Below, piece by piece: positions 50,067 through 59,001 of a stretch of DNA of 64,000 nt. A model generated the notes under the pieces. The model was not told where the DNA came from. It searched no databases and worked only from the letters and a program-made list of their open reading frames with translations. Numbering within the stretch: the first letter of the stretch is position 1; the number at the start of each line of letters is the position of its first letter. Origin of the DNA: Candidatus Enterococcus ferrettii (GTDB taxonomy: Bacteria > Bacillota > Bacilli > Lactobacillales > Enterococcaceae); the NCBI RefSeq assembly GCF_017377655.1, contig NZ_JAFREL010000016.1:62001-126000 (forward strand). The letters are read 5' to 3'. A program made the position numbers and the translations under genes.

Positions 50067-50082
50067 TCACTTCGACACTTTT
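50051..50082 (-). terminator. Terminator overlapping the small-subunit stop codon
   Basis: AAGTGTCGAA pairs with TTCGACGCTT; the stop TGA lies in the 4-nt loop and TTTTTT follows on the minus strand. Confidence 0.88.
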
Positions 50083-50288
50083 CCCTTCTTCCCATAAGAC
50101 AACAAATAGCAAAGCATCCCTGTAATCGCGGCACATGGATATATCCAAGCAAACCACTGATTCGCCCGATCCATTAAATGACTATTACCAACTAATAATC
50201 CCGCCAACTGCAACATCACTAAACAGAATCCGCCAGCAATAAATAGAACAAATCCGACGATAATGATCGTTTCCATGACTTTTCTCAT
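50067..50288 (-). CDS. Small membrane protein, possible truncated DctQ-like subunit
   Basis: 73 aa from ATG 50288 (AAGGAGG upstream). Two hydrophobic segments (about 5-30 and 40-62). The end (ANQWFAWIYPCAAITGML) loosely resembles TRAP small-permease proteins, which normally have four helices. Lies 10 bp after the TRAP-like large permease, so it is probably its accessory subunit. Confidence 0.6.
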   Translation of the reverse strand: MRKVMETIIIVGFVLFIAGGFCLVMLQLAGLLVGNSHLMDRANQWFAWIYPCAAITGMLCYLLSYGKKGKVSK

Positions 50289-50298
50289 TTTTTCCTCC

Positions 50299-51645
50299 TT
50301 ACACAAACAAAGGCAAGTAACCCATCGCAATCAGCCAACCAACCAAAGTAATTGGAATAACAAAGTATTTAATCAATGGATAAAAAGTAGCTTCAGGCCG
50401 ACAGTCAGTTAAACCTGCAGCAATAAAGATAGAACCAGATGCTGGTGGCGAGGCTCCTTCAGTTGAAGCAAAAACTAAAATTGCGACAACAGCTTCTAAT
50501 GGAGAAACTCCTACACTGATTAATCCGGTAAAGGCAATTAAGCCAATTGACGTCAAGGTAGCCGTAGACGATAATGGACCCGCAACTAAAACTACCAGCA
50601 GACCAATCAGTAAAACCATAATCGGCTTTGCAAAATTCAAGGTTGCAAATAGCTCAACCAGTTCAGTGGCTAACCCTAGTTCACTAAAAATTTCACTGGC
50701 CGCAAAAGCAAACAACAAAACTCCGCCAATATTTTTGTAATGCGGAAAAAGAGTCTTCACTAAGTATTGCTTATTAGGAATGTTTTCTTTTAGCTTCTTG
50801 CGACCCAAAAGTAAAATGATTGCGATCATCAGGATCGGAATCCAAGTAAGCAGCGATATTGACCTCAGTGCTTCCCCCATCCCCAGATGGTCATAAACTT
50901 TACCTAGGGGCCCAACAGTTAATGTAATTGGAATAATTGCTCCTAAAAAGACCAGCAACGAGCGCCAATGATGAACAAATGCAGCCTGAACTGAGAGCTT
51001 GTCTTGTGAAGGAAGAGCTGCGATTTTTTCTTTGTGCATCAACCAGCCTACTAGAATTAAGCGGTAAATAACTTGATAAATTCCTGAAACAAAAAGAGTA
51101 ATATATAGTTGGCTCTCTGTGATAAGTTGATTAATTTGGGCAAATCCCAGCATAATAAACATTGAAGCACTAGGCGGAAACCCTGCACCCAATCCTCCAT
51201 TACCGGCTAATAGTGTAGCTACTGTCTCCTTTTTCCACCCCGTTTTGAGCATCCATTGCGCTGTGAAGGTTCCAGAAGTCGCTGTATTGGCAGAATTAGA
51301 GCCTGAGAGCATACCTAAAACTGCCGACAACGCGATATTGACAAATGCTGGACCACCTCGGACGTTTCCCAATAAAGAATCAAAAATAATTAGAATGCCC
51401 TTCAGCAAGCCTGACTCCTTAATCAGGTAGCTCATTAAGACAAAGGCTAACGAAGCAAACAATACCTCATTGGACAAAGCTTTTAGAAAACCAAATTTGA
51501 TCAGCTCTAGAAAATGGCTTCCACCAAACAGAGCCACTACAATAAAGCCTAAAATCATTCCTTCTGCCATGTTTCGTTTCACAACGACAGCCCAAAACAC
51601 GATTAATAAAATATAAACTACTAATGCCCCCACTGCATTTCCCAT
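50299..51645 (-). CDS. TRAP/DctM-like large permease
   Basis: 448 aa, about 12 hydrophobic segments. GNGGLGAGFPPSASMFIM and ASTEGASPPASGSIFIAAG are symmetric helix-breaking loops typical of DctM/ion-transporter superfamily. No DctP binding protein is nearby. Divergent from the PrpR-type activator with a palindrome between them, so it probably imports the organic acid sensed there. Confidence 0.78.
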   Translation of the reverse strand: MGNAVGALVVYILLIVFWAVVVKRNMAEGMILGFIVVALFGGSHFLELIKFGFLKALSNEVLFASLAFVLMSYLIKESGLLKGILIIFDSLLGNVRGGPAFVNIALSAVLGMLSGSNSANTATSGTFTAQWMLKTGWKKETVATLLAGNGGLGAGFPPSASMFIMLGFAQINQLITESQLYITLFVSGIYQVIYRLILVGWLMHKEKIAALPSQDKLSVQAAFVHHWRSLLVFLGAIIPITLTVGPLGKVYDHLGMGEALRSISLLTWIPILMIAIILLLGRKKLKENIPNKQYLVKTLFPHYKNIGGVLLFAFAASEIFSELGLATELVELFATLNFAKPIMVLLIGLLVVLVAGPLSSTATLTSIGLIAFTGLISVGVSPLEAVVAILVFASTEGASPPASGSIFIAAGLTDCRPEATFYPLIKYFVIPITLVGWLIAMGYLPLFV

Positions 51646-51684
51646 AACCTAAACTCCCCAAAAATCTTTATTTTTATGTATGAC

Positions 51685-51699
51685 GTTTCATTTTGAAAC
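51685..51699. promoter_or_regulatory. GTTTCA-N3-TGAAAC palindrome
   Basis: GTTTCATTTTGAAAC, identical to the copy at 58071-58085. TGAAAC half-sites recur at 51714 and 51728, next to the activator start. Probable activator-binding/autoregulatory site. Confidence 0.65.
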
Positions 51700-51734
51700 C
51701 CTCTGATGTAAAATGAAACAAATGAGGTGAAACG

Positions 51735-53600
51735 ATGAAAAATGAAAATATTGTTATTGTCTCTCCATCTAAGAGTTTTACCAATCAGGCAGTACACGTG
51801 ATGGAGGAATTGAAGCTGCACTTTCCAATTCTGCATGCCTCTGGGGGAAACTATTTCGAGAACATCCAACAGATGGTGGAGAATAACCAAGTTTATGCCA
51901 TTATTACTCGTGGGTACAATGTGCAATTTTTACGAGAGAAACTGTCCATCCCCATTGTGGATGTGCGATATACCTTCGAAGATATTTATCATTCGTTCCA
52001 GCATGCGCTGCAGTTTTCCAAAAAGGTTGCCTTTATTTCAACCGATGTGGCTCATGACCGGGCAAAAACCTTTCAGGCAATGACTAACCACTCTATGACA
52101 ATTCCAAAGGTGAATTCGCTTCAGGAAATCCCCATCTCAGTTCAAAAGCTGATTAATGAAGGGATTGAAGTATTTATTGGCGGACGTGCAACAGAAGCTG
52201 CAGCCAAAACTTTTGGTGCTCATTCTGTGGATATTCTGGTTGAAGAAAGCTCCATAAAAACCGCCTTAACTGAGGCCATTCACCTGGTACAGCTGGCGAA
52301 GGAAAAACAGCGAAATCAATCCTTTATCGATGCGATTCTGGAAACAACTGAGAACGGTCTGATTGCTGTTTCATTGGATGCTGAGATTACCTTTGTGAAC
52401 CAAAAAGCCCGCAGCTATTTTGGTGAAGAACTGGATACTTTTGTTCGTACAACATTAATGAATCTAATTCTGGAAGCTACTGAATCCAATTATAACTTGA
52501 TTAACCAGTTAGTGACGGTACATCATCAAAATTTTATTCTAAACATCTCTCCTATCACAATTGACTTTGAGACTACAGGTTATTTGGCCTCTTTAGAGAA
52601 GTTAGATGAATTGCAGGTTAAAGAAGGTGACGTTCGAAACAAGCTATCTGTAAAAATCAATGCCGCAAGACGTAGCTTTGATGATTTGATCGGCTCCAGC
52701 TCTACCCTTCAGCAAACAATCCAAATAGCGAAAAAATATGCCCGCACAGAATCTGTTGTGCTGATTAATGGTGAATCTGGTACTGGGAAAGAGCTGTTTG
52801 CTCAAAGTCTCCATAATGAATCACTTCGGAAGAATGAACCCTTTATCGCTATTAACTGTGCCGCTCTTTCTGAAAGTGTCTTAGAAAGTGAACTGTTTGG
52901 TTATGTCAAAGGTGCCTTTACTGGTGCAGCGAATGATGGGAAAGCTGGTCTCTTTGAAGCTGCTCATAAAGGGACCATTTTCCTAGACGAAATTGGCGAA
53001 ATCTCTCTTAGCTTTCAGGCCAAACTATTGCGGGTTCTGCAGGAAAAAGAAGTTACTCGCATCGGGGACACGAAATCTATTCCTGTGGATGTTCGAATAA
53101 TCTCGGCTACCAATCGCAATTTAATTAAGATGGTAGAGCAAGGCGATTTTCGAGAAGATCTGTACTATCGATTAGATGTCCTAAACTTAAAAATTCCACC
53201 TTTACGCGAACGGCGTTCGGATATTAAGGAGCTGGTGTTGTATTTTCTAAACAAAACGAAAAAACCACTAAAAATTTCTTCTTCAGCAATCCAGCTGTTA
53301 ACCGCCTACGAATTTCCAGGAAATATCCGACAATTGGAAAATATAGTCGAACGACTGATTGTTTTGTGCGAAAATGCCACCATTGATGATAAACTGACAC
53401 GCACCATTATCGCAAGTGAACCTCAGTTGAAAAAACAGATTGAGTTCTTTCCTTCCTCGACTTCTCTTCCAGAAGCTGAAAGGGAATTAATTACTCGTAC
53501 TTTAATTCGCTTTAACAACAACAAGACTCTAACCGCCAAGGAACTGCAGATCAGCAAGTCAACCCTATGGAGGAAGATTAAGCTTTATCAATTAGAATAA
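51735..53600 (+). CDS. PrpR-type sigma-54-dependent activator
   Basis: 621 aa. PrpR_N ligand-sensing domain (about 5-190), PAS-like domain (about 195-290), AAA+ sigma-54 interaction domain (about 315-540) with Walker A GESGTGKE (346-353), GAFTGA (393-398) and Walker B FLDEIGE (417-423), then a Fis-type HTH (LTAKELQISKSTLWRKIKLY). PrpR_N proteins sense small organic acids. In Firmicutes sigma-54 activators are usually LevR-type PTS regulators, so this one is unusual. GAGGTGAAACG ribosome site. Confidence 0.93.
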   Translation: MKNENIVIVSPSKSFTNQAVHVMEELKLHFPILHASGGNYFENIQQMVENNQVYAIITRGYNVQFLREKLSIPIVDVRYTFEDIYHSFQHALQFSKKVAFISTDVAHDRAKTFQAMTNHSMTIPKVNSLQEIPISVQKLINEGIEVFIGGRATEAAAKTFGAHSVDILVEESSIKTALTEAIHLVQLAKEKQRNQSFIDAILETTENGLIAVSLDAEITFVNQKARSYFGEELDTFVRTTLMNLILEATESNYNLINQLVTVHHQNFILNISPITIDFETTGYLASLEKLDELQVKEGDVRNKLSVKINAARRSFDDLIGSSSTLQQTIQIAKKYARTESVVLINGESGTGKELFAQSLHNESLRKNEPFIAINCAALSESVLESELFGYVKGAFTGAANDGKAGLFEAAHKGTIFLDEIGEISLSFQAKLLRVLQEKEVTRIGDTKSIPVDVRIISATNRNLIKMVEQGDFREDLYYRLDVLNLKIPPLRERRSDIKELVLYFLNKTKKPLKISSSAIQLLTAYEFPGNIRQLENIVERLIVLCENATIDDKLTRTIIASEPQLKKQIEFFPSSTSLPEAERELITRTLIRFNNNKTLTAKELQISKSTLWRKIKLYQLE

Positions 53601-53648
53601 GGGAAAACTGAAACACCAATCTTCGCAATAGGTGTTTCAGTTTCTTTT

Positions 53649-54347
53649 CTACAACTGGTACTCTTCATCCATATATTCGACGTTCTTTGCTTCTAATGTA
53701 CGATCTACCCAAGAACGATCCGCTGAACCTGTTGAAGCCTTTTGGACTTTGGCGCTGTCATTTGCTGCATTCGCTTCAGCTTCCTCAATTAAATTTGCAG
53801 CGTCATTTTTAGAAATAATGATTACACCATCACGATCACCTAATACAATATCACCAGGCATTACTGCAATTTCACCGATGGAAATCGGCACATTCACTTC
53901 ACCAGGGCCTTCTTTAAAAGGTCCTCCGGGAGTTGAACCCGTTGCATAGATGGGACATTTTTCGTGGGCCAACACATCTAAGTCGCGAATTGGACCATCA
54001 ATCACAATACCCGCTACCTTTTTGAAATCAGCTAAATACTTATACATGATTTCACCCATAATTGCCCGAGAACGGTCACCTTCATTAGAAAGAATAATGA
54101 CATCGCCTTCTTGCGCCATATTCAAAGCTTGATGCAACATCAAATTATCGCCAGCTCTTGCTTTGACAGTTAATGCAACCCCACACATTCTTTTTTCTGG
54201 GGAAGATTGTAATTGAATTTCTGGCGATAAAGCCGATGTTCGTGACATGCAGTCAGCTACGTTCGCCGCTGGCAGCTTACTAAAGCGTTCGACTAATTCT
54301 GGGGCCGGCAGCTTTCTTTTTAAATAGACGCGGTTTCCAATTGACAT
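53649..54347 (-). CDS. RraA-like aldolase/decarboxylase (copy 1)
   Basis: 232 aa, RraA/HMG-aldolase fold. GDRSRAIMGEIM and DGPIRDLDVL (Arg121-Asp122) correspond to the metal/oxoacid site of 4-hydroxy-4-methyl-2-oxoglutarate aldolases. True RraA (RNase E inhibitor) is shorter and irrelevant here. About three-quarters identical to the copy at 58303. Last gene of the sigma-54 operon; overlaps the dehydrogenase by 28 bp. Confidence 0.85.
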   Translation of the reverse strand: MSIGNRVYLKRKLPAPELVERFSKLPAANVADCMSRTSALSPEIQLQSSPEKRMCGVALTVKARAGDNLMLHQALNMAQEGDVIILSNEGDRSRAIMGEIMYKYLADFKKVAGIVIDGPIRDLDVLAHEKCPIYATGSTPGGPFKEGPGEVNVPISIGEIAVMPGDIVLGDRDGVIIISKNDAANLIEEAEANAANDSAKVQKASTGSADRSWVDRTLEAKNVEYMDEEYQL

Positions 54348-55348
54348 GATGGTTCCTCCTCCTTCAAATCAGTGTAAATAGTTGCTGCACTCCAGTCGAT
54401 AGCTTTTACTGGCCAGGTTGGTTCTTTGCCTTCTGCTACTTCCACGATTCCCATCGCTGAATACAAAGAAGCGCGATTGGTCGCTTCAGCTGTGGCAGCT
54501 CCAATATGCGGTGCAATTACCACATTGCCCAAGTAAAGAATCGGATTTTTTTTATCTACCGGTTCTTGTTGTAAAACATCTAAGCCGGCTGCCGCAATTA
54601 CGTTGTTCTTACAAGCTTCGTACAATTCTTTTTCGTTTACTACCGTTCCACGAGCAGTATTGATAAAGAACGCTGTTGGTTTCATTTTGGCAAATTCTTT
54701 TTCGCCGATTAATTCGCGAGTGACTTCAGTCGTTGGACAGTGCATAGAAACAAAATCTGACTCTTTAAAAATTCGATCCAAATTACGTACAACTTCTACC
54801 CCATCTGGAAAGTCCTTCGCTGGCTTGTATGGATCATAAGCTAAAACCTTCATATGGAATGCATCACGACATTTTTCAGCCACTCGAGAACCAATGTTTC
54901 CACAACCAATAATTCCGACAGTTTTCCCATCCAGCTCTGTTTTTGGTGTACGCAATTTTGCTTTGTAGTAATCATCGATAAAGGTACTGCGAACCTTTGT
55001 GAAATTTCTTGAACAGTAAAGCATATAAAAAACTGCTAGTTCTGCTACAGAAGTTGAGTTGGCTGTTGGACAATATAAAACCTGTACTCCGAATTCTTTC
55101 GCTGCTTCTAAGTCAACCGTGTCAAAACCAGCTCCGTGCCGAACGATCACTTTTAGCTGATCCGCCGCTTCAAAAACCTCACGGGTAATTTTTGACAATC
55201 GAACGACCATCGCATCAATCCCTTTAATATCACGAATGATGTCTTCTGTTTCCATTCCTGATCCCGTAATTAACTCGTGTCCACGACTTTCTAAATAATC
55301 GCGGCCCTCCTGCATAATTTCTTGTGGCAATAAAATTTTCCATCCCAT
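54320..55348 (-). CDS. D-isomer-specific 2-hydroxyacid dehydrogenase
   Basis: 342 aa, SerA-like. GIIGCGNIGSRVAEKC NAD-binding motif, catalytic Arg in NTARGTVV, Glu in LQQEPVD and His in APHIGAAT. Interconverts a D-2-hydroxy acid and its 2-oxo acid. Between the transporter and aldolase genes, it probably makes the 2-oxo acid cleaved by the RraA-like enzyme. Confidence 0.92.
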   Translation of the reverse strand: MGWKILLPQEIMQEGRDYLESRGHELITGSGMETEDIIRDIKGIDAMVVRLSKITREVFEAADQLKVIVRHGAGFDTVDLEAAKEFGVQVLYCPTANSTSVAELAVFYMLYCSRNFTKVRSTFIDDYYKAKLRTPKTELDGKTVGIIGCGNIGSRVAEKCRDAFHMKVLAYDPYKPAKDFPDGVEVVRNLDRIFKESDFVSMHCPTTEVTRELIGEKEFAKMKPTAFFINTARGTVVNEKELYEACKNNVIAAAGLDVLQQEPVDKKNPILYLGNVVIAPHIGAATAEATNRASLYSAMGIVEVAEGKEPTWPVKAIDWSAATIYTDLKEEEPSCQLETASI

Positions 55349-55361
55349 CGTTTCTCTCTCC

Positions 55362-56777
55362 TTACCAAATTCCTATTAATTTCCAATATGGCAGACCAAT
55401 GACGGTGAAAATAATCAACGCTACGCCTACCATAATTGTGCCGATTTTCCAAAATTCCTTTTGCGAAACATAATTTGAAGCAAAGGCGATCAAGCCGGCT
55501 CCATTTCCATAGTGAGTCAGCCATGACCCGTAGCTGGCAAAGAAGGCTAATAATAAAGTTAAGACCATCAAATCTGCCTGTGTTCCCATAGCAATTGCAA
55601 AAATTACCGGAAAGAAAGAAGCTACAAAAGCACTATTGGAAACGAAGAAATATCGAACTGCTAGACTAACCAGCAGCAAAACATACGTAACAAGTAAGCC
55701 GTTGACACTAGAAAGATCTAAAATCTTGTTTAATAAGTCTGCTAGCCATGTATAGAAACCGGCCTCAGCTAAACCAGAGGCTACACCGTAAAAGGCACCG
55801 TACCAAACAAAGACATTCCAAGCACCTTTAGCTCCGATTACGTCATTCCAATTTAAAATGCCGGTAACTAAAACCAATGCTAAGAAAACAAATCCAACAT
55901 TTTGCGTACCTAAAGCCACAAAAGTCAGCTTAGGCCCAAACATCCAGCCTAAAACAGCTAAAATAAAAATGATAAATAGTTTCTTTTCAGCAGCTGTCAC
56001 ACTGCCCATTTTCTCCAGGTTCTCTTTGGCTTGAATTTTAACATCTGTTAATTCCGTTAACTCTGGTTTATATAGCTTGTACACAACAAACGGTCCGACT
56101 AACAAAACCAAACCCGCTGGCACAACTGCTGCCATAAACCAAGTGCCCCAAGTTAATGGGATGTCTAACATTTCTAATGCCAATGAAGCGGTGATTGCGT
56201 TAGTAGCCATACCTGTTAAGAACAACGCTGACGTACTCTGTGAAACAATATAGGAAAGAATCGTCAAATATCCGCCTAATTTTCTTGGATTTTTATCCGG
56301 ATAGGAGTCAACTCCTTCCGCAATATTACGGAAGATCGGATAAATAATCGTTGTTCGCGAGCTGTTGGAGCCCGTTGCTGGACTTAAAATCAAATCAGTC
56401 AACATCATTAGGTATCCTAAACCCAAGGTCGAGTTCCCCGAACGACCTAGTAAAATGTAAGCCATTCGCCGACCCAAACCAGTTTTAACAAAAGCTGTAC
56501 AAACGATTGTTACTGTTGCTAGAAACCAAGCCATGCTGTCACCGTAGCCTGACAGTAAAGTAGCTGGTTCCATAAACATTACGCCAAAACCAATAATGAT
56601 CAGAGTAATAATCGGCTCAGACATTGGTTTGATAATCAACCCAGCCAATAAACCTAAATAAATTGCAACCAAATGCCAAGTATCCACAGCCAAACCGGCT
56701 GGAGCTGGAATGTTCCACAAAGCTATCGGAATCGCCAGCACCACTGTTAATTTTATAATTGTTTTCCTATTTAACAT
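55362..56777 (-). CDS. DASS-family anion:Na+ symporter
   Basis: 471 aa, about 12 hydrophobic segments. SNT-type motif GSNSSRTTIIYPI and the C-terminal YGNGAGLIAFA match SLC13/CitT-like transporters of di- and tricarboxylates. Second gene of the sigma-54 operon. Confidence 0.88.
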   Translation of the reverse strand: MLNRKTIIKLTVVLAIPIALWNIPAPAGLAVDTWHLVAIYLGLLAGLIIKPMSEPIITLIIIGFGVMFMEPATLLSGYGDSMAWFLATVTIVCTAFVKTGLGRRMAYILLGRSGNSTLGLGYLMMLTDLILSPATGSNSSRTTIIYPIFRNIAEGVDSYPDKNPRKLGGYLTILSYIVSQSTSALFLTGMATNAITASLALEMLDIPLTWGTWFMAAVVPAGLVLLVGPFVVYKLYKPELTELTDVKIQAKENLEKMGSVTAAEKKLFIIFILAVLGWMFGPKLTFVALGTQNVGFVFLALVLVTGILNWNDVIGAKGAWNVFVWYGAFYGVASGLAEAGFYTWLADLLNKILDLSSVNGLLVTYVLLLVSLAVRYFFVSNSAFVASFFPVIFAIAMGTQADLMVLTLLLAFFASYGSWLTHYGNGAGLIAFASNYVSQKEFWKIGTIMVGVALIIFTVIGLPYWKLIGIW

Positions 56778-56797
56778 CGTATGCTCCTTCCCATCTC

Positions 56798-57967
56798 TTA
56801 AAAATCAATTTGTCTAAAGACAACAACACCATTACGAACAGTCAATTGATTTTTAAATAGTTGCTTACCGACCATTGTTTTGCCCACAGTATCTTCGAAG
56901 ACTGTTTCCTTGTCGATAATTTTGAAAATAGAGACATCCGCTGCAGCACCTGGGTTCAATGTTCCTATTTCACCTTCAAGTCCCATAATTTTAGCTGGAG
57001 TTGTAGTTACAGCCTTCATAATGTCTTTTAAGGATAGGCCCATATTCAAATATTTCGACATAATAAATGGCAGATTTACTACTTTCGATGGATTGTAGCA
57101 GTTTTTACACGTGCAATCGGTACTGATTACATCTGGCAGAAAGCCATCTTCAAGCGCTTTATAGGCAACGTCGAAATCAAAGTGAGCAACACCGTTCGAT
57201 GAATCAAATATTACTCCCCGCTCACGAGCAGCCTTGATCTTATCTAAAACCTTGCCATTTTTATCCAAAGCAATATTGCCAACCCCGTGATAAATATGAG
57301 CGTATATATCACCAGGTCGGAAGTATTCCGCTAACTCCCCCGCATCAATCACTGGATCAGTCGTGTGTACACAGATTGGACAACCAATTTCTTCAGCAAT
57401 TTTAATGGTTTCCACTAATGGCTCCATATACAGATTGCGATCCTCTAACAAGTCCTTACTAAAACGCAGCTTCAAACCAATCAAGTTGTGCTTGTATTCT
57501 TCAAAAGTCTGAATAATTTTGTCACGATTAAAATTCTTTGGATCGATGTTTTCCAAGTAGCCAGTTGGTCCACCGCCCAAGGTTGCTAAACCAACATTGA
57601 CTACGTTCAAATAACTTTTAATCCGCACAACACTTGGAGTAATGATGGAGTTGTAAAAGCTGCGATAATTTCCCCAGCCAGCACTACCTGCATCAACCAC
57701 TGAAGTGACACCATTTGGTAAAAAAGCTGAATTGGGTTCCACACAAATCGGCGCTCCGTTGTAAAATACGTGAGCGTGAAAATCAATTAACCCTGGAAAA
57801 ACATAGCAGCCGCTAGCATCGATGACTCTTTCTGCTGACAGTGCTGCTTCATCCAATCCGGCAACATCGACGATCTTGTTGCCTCTGACTCCTATATTCT
57901 TCACTTCATCAACATCGCTGCTGGTGTCGTAGACTCTCCCGTTTTTAATCAAAATATCTAGCTCCAT
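56798..57967 (-). CDS. Amidohydrolase / deacetylase (EF_0837/Atu3266-type)
   Basis: 389 aa, dihydroorotase-like TIM barrel. Metal ligands His64/His66 (FHAHV), candidate carboxylated Lys166 (GLKLRF), His201 (VHTT), His224/His227 (AHIYHG) and Asp284 (STDCTC). The related Atu3266 was reported to hydrolyse acetyl-(R)-mandelate, an O-acyl 2-hydroxy acid; if this is similar it would release the D-2-hydroxy acid for the operon's dehydrogenase. First gene of the sigma-54 operon. Confidence 0.87.
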   Translation of the reverse strand: MELDILIKNGRVYDTSSDVDEVKNIGVRGNKIVDVAGLDEAALSAERVIDASGCYVFPGLIDFHAHVFYNGAPICVEPNSAFLPNGVTSVVDAGSAGWGNYRSFYNSIITPSVVRIKSYLNVVNVGLATLGGGPTGYLENIDPKNFNRDKIIQTFEEYKHNLIGLKLRFSKDLLEDRNLYMEPLVETIKIAEEIGCPICVHTTDPVIDAGELAEYFRPGDIYAHIYHGVGNIALDKNGKVLDKIKAARERGVIFDSSNGVAHFDFDVAYKALEDGFLPDVISTDCTCKNCYNPSKVVNLPFIMSKYLNMGLSLKDIMKAVTTTPAKIMGLEGEIGTLNPGAAADVSIFKIIDKETVFEDTVGKTMVGKQLFKNQLTVRNGVVVFRQIDF

Positions 57968-58001
57968 TTTGAATCCCCCTTTTTCTTATACTTCTCTATA
58001 A

Positions 58002-58018
58002 AGCAAGTAACGTGCCAA
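58002..58018 (-). promoter_or_regulatory. Sigma-54 (-24/-12) promoter
   Basis: On the minus strand TTGGCACGTTACTTGCTT matches YTGGCACG-N4-TTGCW exactly, with GG and GC separated by 10 bases. It lies about 35-50 bp upstream of the amidohydrolase start, and a gene for a sigma-54 activator is 4 kb away. Confidence 0.88.
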
Positions 58019-58070
58019 AATGGGAATCGCTAACAAAAGCTGTTTTCAATTGTCATAAAAGCGCATTGTC

Positions 58071-58206
58071 GTTTCATTTTGAAACAAACGTATCATTTTA
58101 AAACTATATTTATTCCGTTATAAAGCCCTATTAACAATTTTGCTTTTCCTTTTTTCTATAGGAAAGTCCGGAAACTATTTTTCGAAAGGTCGTTTCATTT
58201 AGAAAA
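58071..58206. promoter_or_regulatory. Activator upstream sites: one perfect and two imperfect palindromes
   Basis: GTTTCATTTTGAAAC (58071-58085) is followed 19 bp on by GTATCATTTTAAAAC (58090-58104), and GTTTCATTTAGAAAA occurs at 58192-58206. The first is 53 bp upstream of the -24 element, the usual range for enhancer-bound activators. This accounts for the 335-base gap between divergent genes. Confidence 0.7.
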
Positions 58207-58302
58207 ATAGCAGTGTACAATTACCTATATGCGCAAATTTTAAAATCAATTTCGCAGTCCATATCTTCACATCAAAAGCTGCATTTAAAAGGAGGAATTA
58301 TT

Positions 58303-59001
58303 ATGTCCATCGGAAATCGTGTTTTTTTGAAACGTCACCAAGCTGATCCGAAATTGGTTGAACGCTTTGGTAAGCTTCCTACTGCGGATGTCGCCGATTG
58401 TCTGTCGCGCACTTCTGCTTTGTCGCCTGAAATCAGACTTCAATCCTCGCCAGAGAAATACATGTGCGGAGTTGCTCTAACTGTAAAAGCTAGAGCTGGT
58501 GATAACCTGATGCTGCACCAAGCAATGAAAATGGCACAGGAGGGCGATGTCATTATTCTTTCTAATGAAGGAGATCGCTCTCGTGCATTGATGGGAGAAA
58601 TCATGTATAAGTATTTAGCCGATTACAAGAAAGTAGCAGGAATTGTAATTGATGGACCGATTCGTGACTTGGATGTGTTAGCTCGTGAAAAGTGTCCGAT
58701 TTATGCAACTGCCTCGACTCCGCAAGCTTCTTACAAGGAGGGACCTGGCGAAGTGAATGGACCCATTTCTGTTGGTGGGATCACCGTTATGCCCGGCGAT
58801 ATTGTACTGGGCGATCGAGATGGTGTTGTAATTATCCCCAAAAAGGATGCAGCACAGATTATTGATCAGGCCGAGGCCATCACCACAAATGATCGGGAGA
58901 AGGTTCAAAAAGCGAGTGTCGGTAATATAGATCATTCTTGGCTTACCAAGACCCTAGAGGAAAAACATGTGGAATTTATTGATGAGGAGTTTTCACTGTA
59001 G
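58303..59001 (+). CDS. RraA-like aldolase/decarboxylase (copy 2)
   Basis: 232 aa from ATG 58303 (AAGGAGG upstream; an earlier in-frame ATG at 58213 lacks one). Same active-site blocks as copy 1 (GDRSRALMGEIM; DGPIRDLDVL). It is divergent from the sigma-54 operon. I found no GG-N10-GC promoter before it, so it may be transcribed by the vegetative sigma factor. Confidence 0.87.
   Translation: MSIGNRVFLKRHQADPKLVERFGKLPTADVADCLSRTSALSPEIRLQSSPEKYMCGVALTVKARAGDNLMLHQAMKMAQEGDVIILSNEGDRSRALMGEIMYKYLADYKKVAGIVIDGPIRDLDVLAREKCPIYATASTPQASYKEGPGEVNGPISVGGITVMPGDIVLGDRDGVVIIPKKDAAQIIDQAEAITTNDREKVQKASVGNIDHSWLTKTLEEKHVEFIDEEFSL

What the first reader, a model, noticed from the sequence alone, without database searches (positions are those of the whole stretch)
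50067..59001. PrpR-type sigma-54 regulon for an acyl 2-hydroxy acid or branched oxo acid
A sigma-54 activator, an exact -24/-12 promoter on the divergent operon 4 kb away, and a matching palindrome at both loci tie amidohydrolase, DASS transporter, D-2-hydroxyacid dehydrogenase and RraA-like aldolase into one regulon. The order suggests import, deacylation, oxidation to a 2-oxo acid and retro-aldol cleavage. This use of sigma-54 in a lactic-acid-type Firmicute is unusual because LevR-type PTS control is the norm.
Basis: partly seen in the sequence, partly recalled or inferred. Interest (0 to 1): 0.78.

Follow-up and report, generated by a model that had tools for sequence, protein, structure and literature searches.

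The report
PrpR-type sigma-54 hydroxy-acid gene cassette
An Enterococcus carries a set of genes that probably imports an unidentified organic acid and breaks it down, switched on by a regulator and promoter of the type that controls propionate use in Salmonella; the same gene set, with the same DNA switch, also occurs on plasmids of Gram-negative bacteria.

Summary
A PrpR_N–PAS–AAA–Fis activator (51735-53600 +), an exact -24/-12 promoter (58002-58017 -) and an exact palindrome GTTTCATTTTGAAAC at both loci are real. No further exact copy of the palindrome is in the 5.4 Mb assembly. Against E. pallens, palindrome and promoter are conserved islands in a diverged upstream region.

The regulon is supported beyond the window. 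Dehydrogenase, RraA protein, DASS transporter, amidohydrolase and a PrpR_N activator lie together on four Pantoea plasmids and one E. coli plasmid. All seven amidohydrolase cassettes examined have an exact TTTCA-N3-TGAAA site 54-153 bp upstream of a sigma-54-type promoter (exact only in Enterococcus), although the activators are only about 31% identical. The half-sites are those of the published PrpR enhancer (CGTTTCATGAAACG), with three extra bases between them.

Corrections: the catabolic operon converges on the activator; the DctM permease gene is the divergent one. It is PrpR-type, not PrpR: both PrpR equivalog cut-offs are missed and no PrpD passes its cut-off.

The chemistry (import, hydrolysis, NAD oxidation, C–C cleavage) is plausible but unproven; the substrate is unknown. 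A paralogous E. pallens cassette has an HD-like protein instead of the amidohydrolase, suggesting interchangeable entry enzymes. New variant of a known kind.

The parts
50067..50288 (-). 73-aa protein, hydrophobic by eye, directly downstream of the DctM-type permease gene; no Pfam family over a cut-off
   Evidence: homologue (75% over 68 aa) at the same place in E. pallens L070
50299..51645 (-). DctM-type permease, divergent from the activator gene
   Evidence: Pfam DctM 150.2 bits (cut-off 23.8); NCBIfam dctM 59.4 < 268.45; 87% identical in L070
51685..51699 (.). operator GTTTCATTTTGAAAC between activator and permease genes; a further inverted half-site at 51710-51719
   Evidence: in E. pallens one base of the palindrome differs, in a region that is 88% identical overall
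51735..53600 (+). PrpR_N-PAS-AAA(sigma-54)-HTH_8 activator with GAFTGA loop
   Evidence: below both PrpR equivalog cut-offs
53649..54347 (-). RraA-family protein 1 (putative aldolase or decarboxylase)
54320..55348 (-). D-isomer-specific 2-hydroxyacid dehydrogenase, 66-67% identical to the Pantoea/E. coli cassette enzymes compared
55362..56777 (-). DASS-family sodium-coupled anion symporter
   Evidence: NCBIfam TIGR00785 340.5 bits (cut-off 198.6); nearest of three E. coli DASS proteins compared is YbhI, 38%
56798..57967 (-). amidohydrolase of the PRK12394 group
58002..58017 (-). sigma-54 promoter TGGCACGTTACTTGCT (-24/-12)
   Evidence: conserved in L070
58071..58085 (.). operator GTTTCATTTTGAAAC; its 13-bp core ends 54 bp upstream of the -24 element
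58192..58206 (.). weaker operator-like site GTTTCATTTAGAAAA; not conserved in E. pallens
58303..59001 (+). RraA-family protein 2 (78% identical to protein 1), divergent from the operon; probable start is the ATG at 58303 behind AAAGGAGG, not the GTG at 58213
   Evidence: retained in L070

Best explanation
This is a PrpR-type sigma-54 regulon for catabolism of one organic-acid substrate. Well supported by sequence: the activator uses a spaced PrpR-like operator (GTTTCA-N3-TGAAAC) upstream of the amidohydrolase operon, whose promoter is of sigma-54 type. Inferred: the same operator between the activator and the DctM permease gene gives feedback on the activator and/or control of the permease through an ordinary promoter. 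Inferred from families: DASS imports an anionic, probably di- or tricarboxylic, acylated or ring-closed (R)-2-hydroxy acid; the amidohydrolase hydrolyses it to the free (R)-2-hydroxy acid; the dehydrogenase oxidises this with NAD to a 2-oxo acid; the RraA protein cleaves it by retro-aldol reaction or beta-decarboxylation to pyruvate or a similar product. The pathway acid, or its oxo form, is the likely ligand of PrpR_N. The cassette has moved between phyla with its operator, and in E. pallens a paralogous cassette has an HD-like protein where this one has the amidohydrolase.
For: Exact promoter and operator, genome-wide rarity and rpoN. Footprint: apart from the ribosome-binding regions, a 17-bp block with the palindrome and TTGGCACG..ACTTGCTTTATAGA are the longest conserved blocks between the window and E. 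pallens in a diverged upstream region. Cassette DH-RraA-DASS-AH-activator contiguous in 4 of 4 Pantoea plasmid records with the amidohydrolase and in 1 E. coli plasmid, PrpR_N in 5 of 5 of those activators. Operator core plus a GG-N10-GC promoter in 7 of 7 cassette upstream regions, core end 54-153 bp before -24; 0.05-0.85% of first-order Markov resamplings of each region hold an exact core. Half-sites equal those of the published PrpR enhancer. Activator and dehydrogenase relatives share 12 longest-contig lengths (120 listed rows each; shifted controls 0-1), 11 of them long enough to hold both genes; amidohydrolase and dehydrogenase share 9 (controls 0-2). Second E. pallens cassette: PrpR_N activator, DH, DASS, HD-like protein, RraA with its own exact promoter.
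Against: No expression, binding or enzyme data. No family assigns a substrate; the RraA proteins and the dehydrogenase miss every function-specific NCBIfam cut-off among the hits shown. No -24/-12 match with up to 2 mismatches lies before the DctM gene or, in its direction, before RraA 2, so their membership is inferred. None of the five Gram-negative cassettes has an exact -24/-12: 9-10 of 11 positions match; searches at up to 1 mismatch gave a chance-level number of hits in L075 and none in L076. The core motif was defined after seeing L075 and L076, and L093 is nearly the same plasmid region as L075 (same DASS accession), so only L078 and L094 are independent tests. The 54-bp operator-promoter distance is shorter than the 80-150 bp given as general in PMC8262876. 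The paralogous E. pallens cassette lacks the TTTCA-N3-TGAAA core.
Confidence: 0.8

Rival explanations
1. A sub-version of the best explanation: the pathway handles a malate- or tartrate-like acid and the RraA protein works as a beta-decarboxylase (oxaloacetate decarboxylase type), not as a retro-aldolase; the amidohydrolase removes an O-acyl or N-acyl group first.
For: The best RraA match among solved chains is an aldolase/oxaloacetate decarboxylase, 3noj. After two phosphoglycerate dehydrogenase chains the dehydrogenase's best solved relative is McyI, recalled to act on a 3-methylmalate-type acid. DASS carriers move dicarboxylates (recalled).
Against: No substrate data; the DASS protein is nearer to YbhI, annotated as a putative tricarboxylate carrier (38%), than to TtdT (32%) or CitT (30%), which points slightly to larger acids.
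Confidence: 0.4
2. Another sub-version: the pathway handles a sugar-acid-like 2,4-dihydroxy acid or lactone; the amidohydrolase opens a lactone or deacylates, the dehydrogenase gives a 4-hydroxy-2-oxo acid and the RraA protein splits it by retro-aldol reaction.
For: A distant amidohydrolase relative (35%) sits with a dehydrogenase relative (36%) and, by eye from translations only, a kinase, PdxA and DHDPS-like aldolase set in L081; another PrpR_N activator with an exact sigma-54 promoter sits beside such a set, there confirmed by Pfam, in L091.
Against: Those enzymes are only 35-36% identical to the window's; a DASS carrier would be unusual for sugar acids (recalled).
Confidence: 0.3
3. The activator is simply PrpR serving propionate (2-methylcitrate) catabolism.
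For: PrpR_N domain, best NCBIfam hit TIGR02329, PrpR-like half-sites.
Against: 397.6 < 499.2 and 363.9 < 703 bits; no PrpD over the cut-off in the genome; extra PAS region; operator spacing differs from the published enhancer and from the K-12 prpR-prpB region.
Confidence: 0.03
4. The activator controls only itself and the DctM permease; the amidohydrolase operon answers to another activator.
For: The activator gene and the DctM gene share one intergenic operator; the amidohydrolase promoter is 4.4 kb from the end of the activator gene.
Against: The identical operator lies beside the amidohydrolase promoter and in no third place as an exact copy; in the five Gram-negative cassettes the activator gene is directly downstream of the amidohydrolase gene.
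Confidence: 0.05

Closest known systems
PrpR / prpBCDE of Salmonella and E. coli (sigma-54, PrpR_N activator)
   Same: PrpR_N + AAA + Fis-type HTH activator, sigma-54 promoter, one-component design, half-sites GTTTCA/TGAAAC (enhancer CGTTTCATGAAACG in PMC4987338, passage seen)
   Different: 621 aa with a PAS region against 528 codons for K-12 prpR; below PrpR equivalog cut-offs; three bases between half-sites; no PrpD over the cut-off; different enzymes
LevR-type (MptR, MpoR, LpoR, MphR, XpoR) sigma-54 regulons of E. faecalis
   Same: RpoN and an exact match to the E. faecalis sigma-54 consensus TTGGCACNNNNNTTGCT (PMC8262876, passage)
   Different: no PTS family among the seven proteins scanned here and a PrpR_N instead of a PRD-type activator; organic-acid enzymes and a DASS carrier
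PrpR_N-bearing sigma-54 activators of Clostridiales
   Same: PrpR_N domains are listed among the regulatory domains of 431 activators (PMC6615313, passages)
   Different: the passages seen do not describe this gene set, and the words aldolase and GAAAC do not occur in that main text; the rest of the paper and its supplements were not read
Five-gene cassette of Pantoea plasmids and E. coli pEc-JB2-4 (annotated only as hydroxyacid dehydrogenase, RraA, DASS, metallo-dependent hydrolase, sigma-54 activator)
   Same: same five families, 54-67% identity of the enzymes and carrier compared, same operator core and promoter type
   Different: gene order; activators 30-31% identical, with GAFTNA/GAFTSA instead of GAFTGA in the three aligned; no DctM permease or second RraA annotated in the stretches fetched
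Amidohydrolase group of Atu3266 (2ogj) and EF_0837 (2ics)
   Different: 25-27% identity in the structural alignments; EF_0837 model cut-off not met (220.9 < 432.15)
8je0, 'A novel amidohydrolase' (PDB title)
   Different: no paper found by its code, so no substrate is known to me

Membership tests
PrpR (propionate regulator) | PrpR_N sensor, sigma-54 AAA domain, Fis-type HTH | tested here: met
PrpR (propionate regulator) | NCBIfam equivalog cut-offs (TIGR02329 499.2; NF011953 703) | tested here: not met
   397.6 and 363.9 bits
PrpR (propionate regulator) | methylcitrate-cycle gene prpD in the genome | tested here: not met
   PF03972 best 21.1 bits < 32.1 in a genome rated 100% complete; prpB and prpC were not searched
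PrpR (propionate regulator) | enhancer CGTTTCATGAAACG | tested here: not met
   same half-sites but three extra bases between them
sigma-54 dependent operon | -24/-12 element matching the consensus, rpoN and an activator | tested here: met
sigma-54 dependent operon | transcription lost without rpoN / activator | not testable with these tools
   needs mutants
HMG/CHA aldolase - oxaloacetate decarboxylase (RraA-like) | equivalog cut-offs PRK09262 179, LigK 304.5 | tested here: not met
   126-132 and 113-117 bits for the two proteins
HMG/CHA aldolase - oxaloacetate decarboxylase (RraA-like) | Arg-Asp pair and the GDN...H motif of 3noj | tested here: met
   both align with 3noj for RraA 1; that these residues are catalytic is recalled
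DASS carriers | TIGR00785 cut-off 198.6 | tested here: met
   340.5 bits
PRK12394 metallo-dependent hydrolases | NF009060 cut-off 442 | tested here: met
   514.2 bits
phosphoglycerate dehydrogenase | TIGR01327 cut-off 454 | tested here: not met
   275.2 bits
TRAP transporter | DctM subfamily cut-off 268.45 | tested here: not met
   59.4 bits, (Pfam DctM is met)
TRAP transporter | DctP binding protein encoded | tested here: inconclusive
   no ORF of its size next to the permease gene (largest between 49115 and 50066 is 122 aa); the rest of the genome was not searched

The most novel reading that the evidence does not exclude
A horizontally moving, self-regulated catabolic cassette, shared by Firmicutes and Enterobacterales, for an undescribed route of acylated or ring-closed (R)-2-hydroxy polycarboxylates: a core (DASS, dehydrogenase, RraA protein, PrpR_N activator) with interchangeable entry hydrolases (amidohydrolase or HD-like protein), in which the activator's short operator (TTTCA-N3-TGAAA) has been kept while the activator itself diverged to about 31% identity.
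Probability: 0.4. Interest if true: 0.68.

Novelty: new variant of a known kind. Interest (0 to 1): 0.55.

Why it matters
It would show that PrpR-type sigma-54 control reaches an Enterococcus outside the PTS world, give a DNA signature (a spaced PrpR site) for mining similar regulons across phyla, and point to an unassigned organic-acid pathway, present also on plasmids of Pantoea and of an E. coli from a rabbit farm, whose substrate can be tested directly with purified enzymes.

Tried and rejected
Propionate/PrpR identity: rejected. Literature on the cassette: nothing for RraA + DASS + hydroxyacid dehydrogenase + amidohydrolase, at least three terms, nothing for E. pallens/RraA/dehydrogenase/symporter, at least two terms, one dihydroorotase paper for Atu3266/cog3964/PRK12394 (listing), two irrelevant papers for 8JE0, and nothing evident in the listings. 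The library holds open-licence papers only. Salmonella STM0649-0653 looked promising by memory, but the passages name a putative hydrolase and a 2-keto-3-deoxygluconate permease, not this cassette (search). Salmonella plasmid pPJT1 (L077) carries only a 43% amidohydrolase beside an MFS carrier. The amidohydrolase scan of genome contigs returned only E. pallens, but its patterns reach close relatives only and missed the Enterobacterales relatives that exist. Phylum draws found the amidohydrolase at E <= 1e-60 in 3 of 398 genomes (own, 42%, 36%) and the dehydrogenase at E <= 1e-90 in 1 of 398, the window's own. 2 of 105 genomes of the family have the dehydrogenase at E <= 1e-70, although the protein search names further Enterococcus strains, so one genome per species misses carriers. 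blastn with the Pantoea gene found the amidohydrolase in 1 of 5426 complete E. coli genomes; the protein search names other E. coli sequences too (P0056, P0063). The amidohydrolase model is weak around active-site loops (mean pLDDT 77.2), so no substrate was read from it. The sigma-70 scan gave the chance number (22 found, 22.0 expected), so no such promoter is claimed. The contig-length test used the 120 listed rows of 655, 7845 and 634 proteins found; one of its 12 activator-dehydrogenase coincidences, a contig of 2086 bases (P0178/P0268), is too short to hold both genes and must be chance or partial. In one search the promoter reported per region is the best-scoring window by construction.
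Full report
What is there. The window lies in a 5.4 Mb assembly (157 contigs) close to Enterococcus pallens: the E. pallens ATCC BAA-351 record holds the whole locus in the same arrangement, with protein identities of 75-97%. On the - strand run amidohydrolase, DASS carrier, D-2-hydroxyacid dehydrogenase and RraA protein 1 (57967 to 53649); the activator (51735-53600 +) meets this operon tail to tail; a DctM-type permease and a 73-aa protein (51645 to 50067 -) diverge from the activator; a second RraA protein (58303-59001 +) diverges from the operon.

Promoter and operator. The -24/-12 site TGGCACGTTACTTGCT (58002-58017 -) is the only match with at most 1 mismatch in the window and one of 25 exact sites in the genome, against 5 for the reversed pattern. 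Comparing the lists by eye, 20 of 21 strong sigma-54 activator genes have an exact site within 5.5 kb. RpoN is encoded, and the site with the T before it fits the E. faecalis consensus TTGGCACNNNNNTTGCT (PMC8262876, passages). The palindrome GTTTCATTTTGAAAC occurs exactly twice in the assembly, both times here; looser versions are less telling. Between the window and E. pallens the upstream region has diverged (72% mean column identity), but, besides the two ribosome-binding regions, a 17-bp block with the palindrome and the block TTGGCACG..ACTTGCTTTATAGA are kept. The second palindrome is kept with one change, in an intergenic region that is 88% identical overall and so says less.

Evidence from another phylum. 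tblastn in plasmids and blastn in E. coli genomes found the cassette DH-RraA-DASS-amidohydrolase-activator on four Pantoea plasmids and one E. coli plasmid. Enzymes and carrier are 54-67% identical to the window's (in which E. coli and one or two Pantoea records were aligned) and the activators 30-31%, yet all five activators have PrpR_N, the AAA domain and HTH_8. In all seven cassette upstream regions (window, E. pallens, four Pantoea, E. coli) an exact TTTCA-N3-TGAAA ends 54-153 bp before a promoter with GG-N10-GC spacing; between 0.05% and 0.85% of first-order Markov resamplings of each region hold such a core. Limits: the promoter is exact in the two Enterococcus loci only and matches 9-10 of 11 positions elsewhere; searches at up to 1 mismatch were at chance level in L075 and empty in L076; the core was defined with L075 and L076 in view, and L093 is almost the same region as L075, so L078 and L094 are the independent tests, and both pass. 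In the three Gram-negative stretches searched over their whole length, L075, L076 and L078, the core occurs 1, 2 and 1 times in 17-19 kb (0.02-0.04 expected), each time in that upstream region.

Relation to PrpR. The mini-review PMC4987338 (passages only) gives the PrpR enhancer as CGTTTCATGAAACG. The operator here has the same half-sites with three more bases between them; the K-12 prpR-prpB region shows the half-sites by eye in other spacings and no TTTCA-N3-TGAAA. The activator misses both PrpR equivalog cut-offs, has an added PAS region, and the genome has no PrpD over the family cut-off. It works like PrpR but is not PrpR.

How common. Nineteen of 21 strong activators in this genome are 819-990 aa, the length of LevR-type proteins (their domains were not scanned); two are shorter (621 and 579 aa). 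Of 395 genomes of the order, 29 with the window's own matched the activator at E <= 1e-60, but only two others (G361, G389) align over nearly the whole length, residues 5-615; in G361 Pfam confirms PrpR_N, an rpoN gene one small ORF away and a DUF1537-type kinase/Fe-alcohol dehydrogenase/PdxA/DHDPS-like set behind an exact sigma-54 promoter; G389 looks the same by eye. PrpR_N-bearing activators are also reported in Clostridiales (PMC6615313, passages). The dehydrogenase was found at E <= 1e-70 in 2 of 105 genomes of the family and at E <= 1e-90 in 1 of 398 of the phylum. Named relatives in the protein search include Enterococcus sp. AZ109 (87%), Clostridioides (80%), Neobacillus drentensis (80%), Fusobacterium russii (67%), E. 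gilvus (66%) and Salmonella enterica (65%), so species-level draws miss carriers. Twelve longest-contig lengths are shared between the 120 listed activator relatives and the 120 listed dehydrogenase relatives (0-1 in shifted controls), one of which is too short to hold both genes; nine are shared between the amidohydrolase and dehydrogenase lists (0-2 in controls). This suggests, without proving, that the genes are neighbours on those contigs.

A second cassette. Genome G799, evidently E. pallens itself (the dehydrogenase place G799:C1:588814-589839 equals that in the record of L070), carries a paralogous set: activator with PrpR_N (38% identical), exact -24/-12, dehydrogenase (63%), DASS (52%), a 187-aa protein with a sub-threshold HD-domain match (20.8 bits, cut-off 22), RraA (56%), and no amidohydrolase match at E <= 1e-4 in that 19-kb stretch. 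So the core is dehydrogenase + DASS + RraA + activator, and the first enzyme seems exchangeable.

Verdict. Observation confirmed, regulon very likely (about 0.9 on its own), substrate class open (each specific chemistry at or below about 0.4). The finding is a new variant of a known kind, of moderate interest, raised by the cross-phylum conservation of a short operator under strong divergence of its activator.

Noticed in passing
L071:9040-17867 (G000:C92, outside the window): Second short sigma-54 activator (579 aa, best NCBIfam hit PrdR, below cut-off) of the same genome, divergent from an exact -24/-12 site and an operon with a glycyl radical enzyme that passes the PFL2-3 subfamily cut-off but misses those of CutC (699 < 1050), HYPD (597 < 1100) and the other named types listed, plus activase, MFS carrier and a P5C-reductase-like protein (below its cut-off): substrate unassigned.
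   Followed up: partly
L090:6300-12077 (G799, evidently E. pallens): Paralogous PrpR_N cassette with an HD-like protein in place of the amidohydrolase and its own exact sigma-54 promoter.
   Followed up: partly
L075, L076, L078 activators: The three Gram-negative cassette activators aligned read GAFTNA or GAFTSA where the sigma-54 contact loop is normally GAFTGA (recalled); the window's protein has GAFTGA.
   Followed up: no
L091:7494-18612 (and L092 by eye): A PrpR_N activator gene lies one small ORF from rpoN, with an exact sigma-54 promoter and a DUF1537-type kinase/Fe-alcohol dehydrogenase/PdxA/DHDPS-like set, a BNR-repeat protein and a CitMHS-type carrier.
   Followed up: partly
window 50067-51645: DctM-type permease gene without a DctP-sized neighbour, followed by a 73-aa hydrophobic protein without any family over a cut-off; the pair is kept in E. 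pallens.
   Followed up: partly
window 53605-53645: Long inverted repeat between the ends of the activator and RraA 1 genes, read by eye, probably a two-way terminator; it was not listed by the terminator scan.
   Followed up: no
L078 (E. coli pEc-JB2-4 plasmid): The only cassette found by blastn among 5426 complete E. coli genomes; an IS110 transposase gene lies before it and a recombinase gene annotated as broken after it, which suggests acquisition.
   Followed up: no
window 58213: The listed GTG start of the second RraA gene is 90 bp upstream of a better start (ATG 58303 behind AAAGGAGG) that gives the same 232-aa length as RraA 1.
   Followed up: yes
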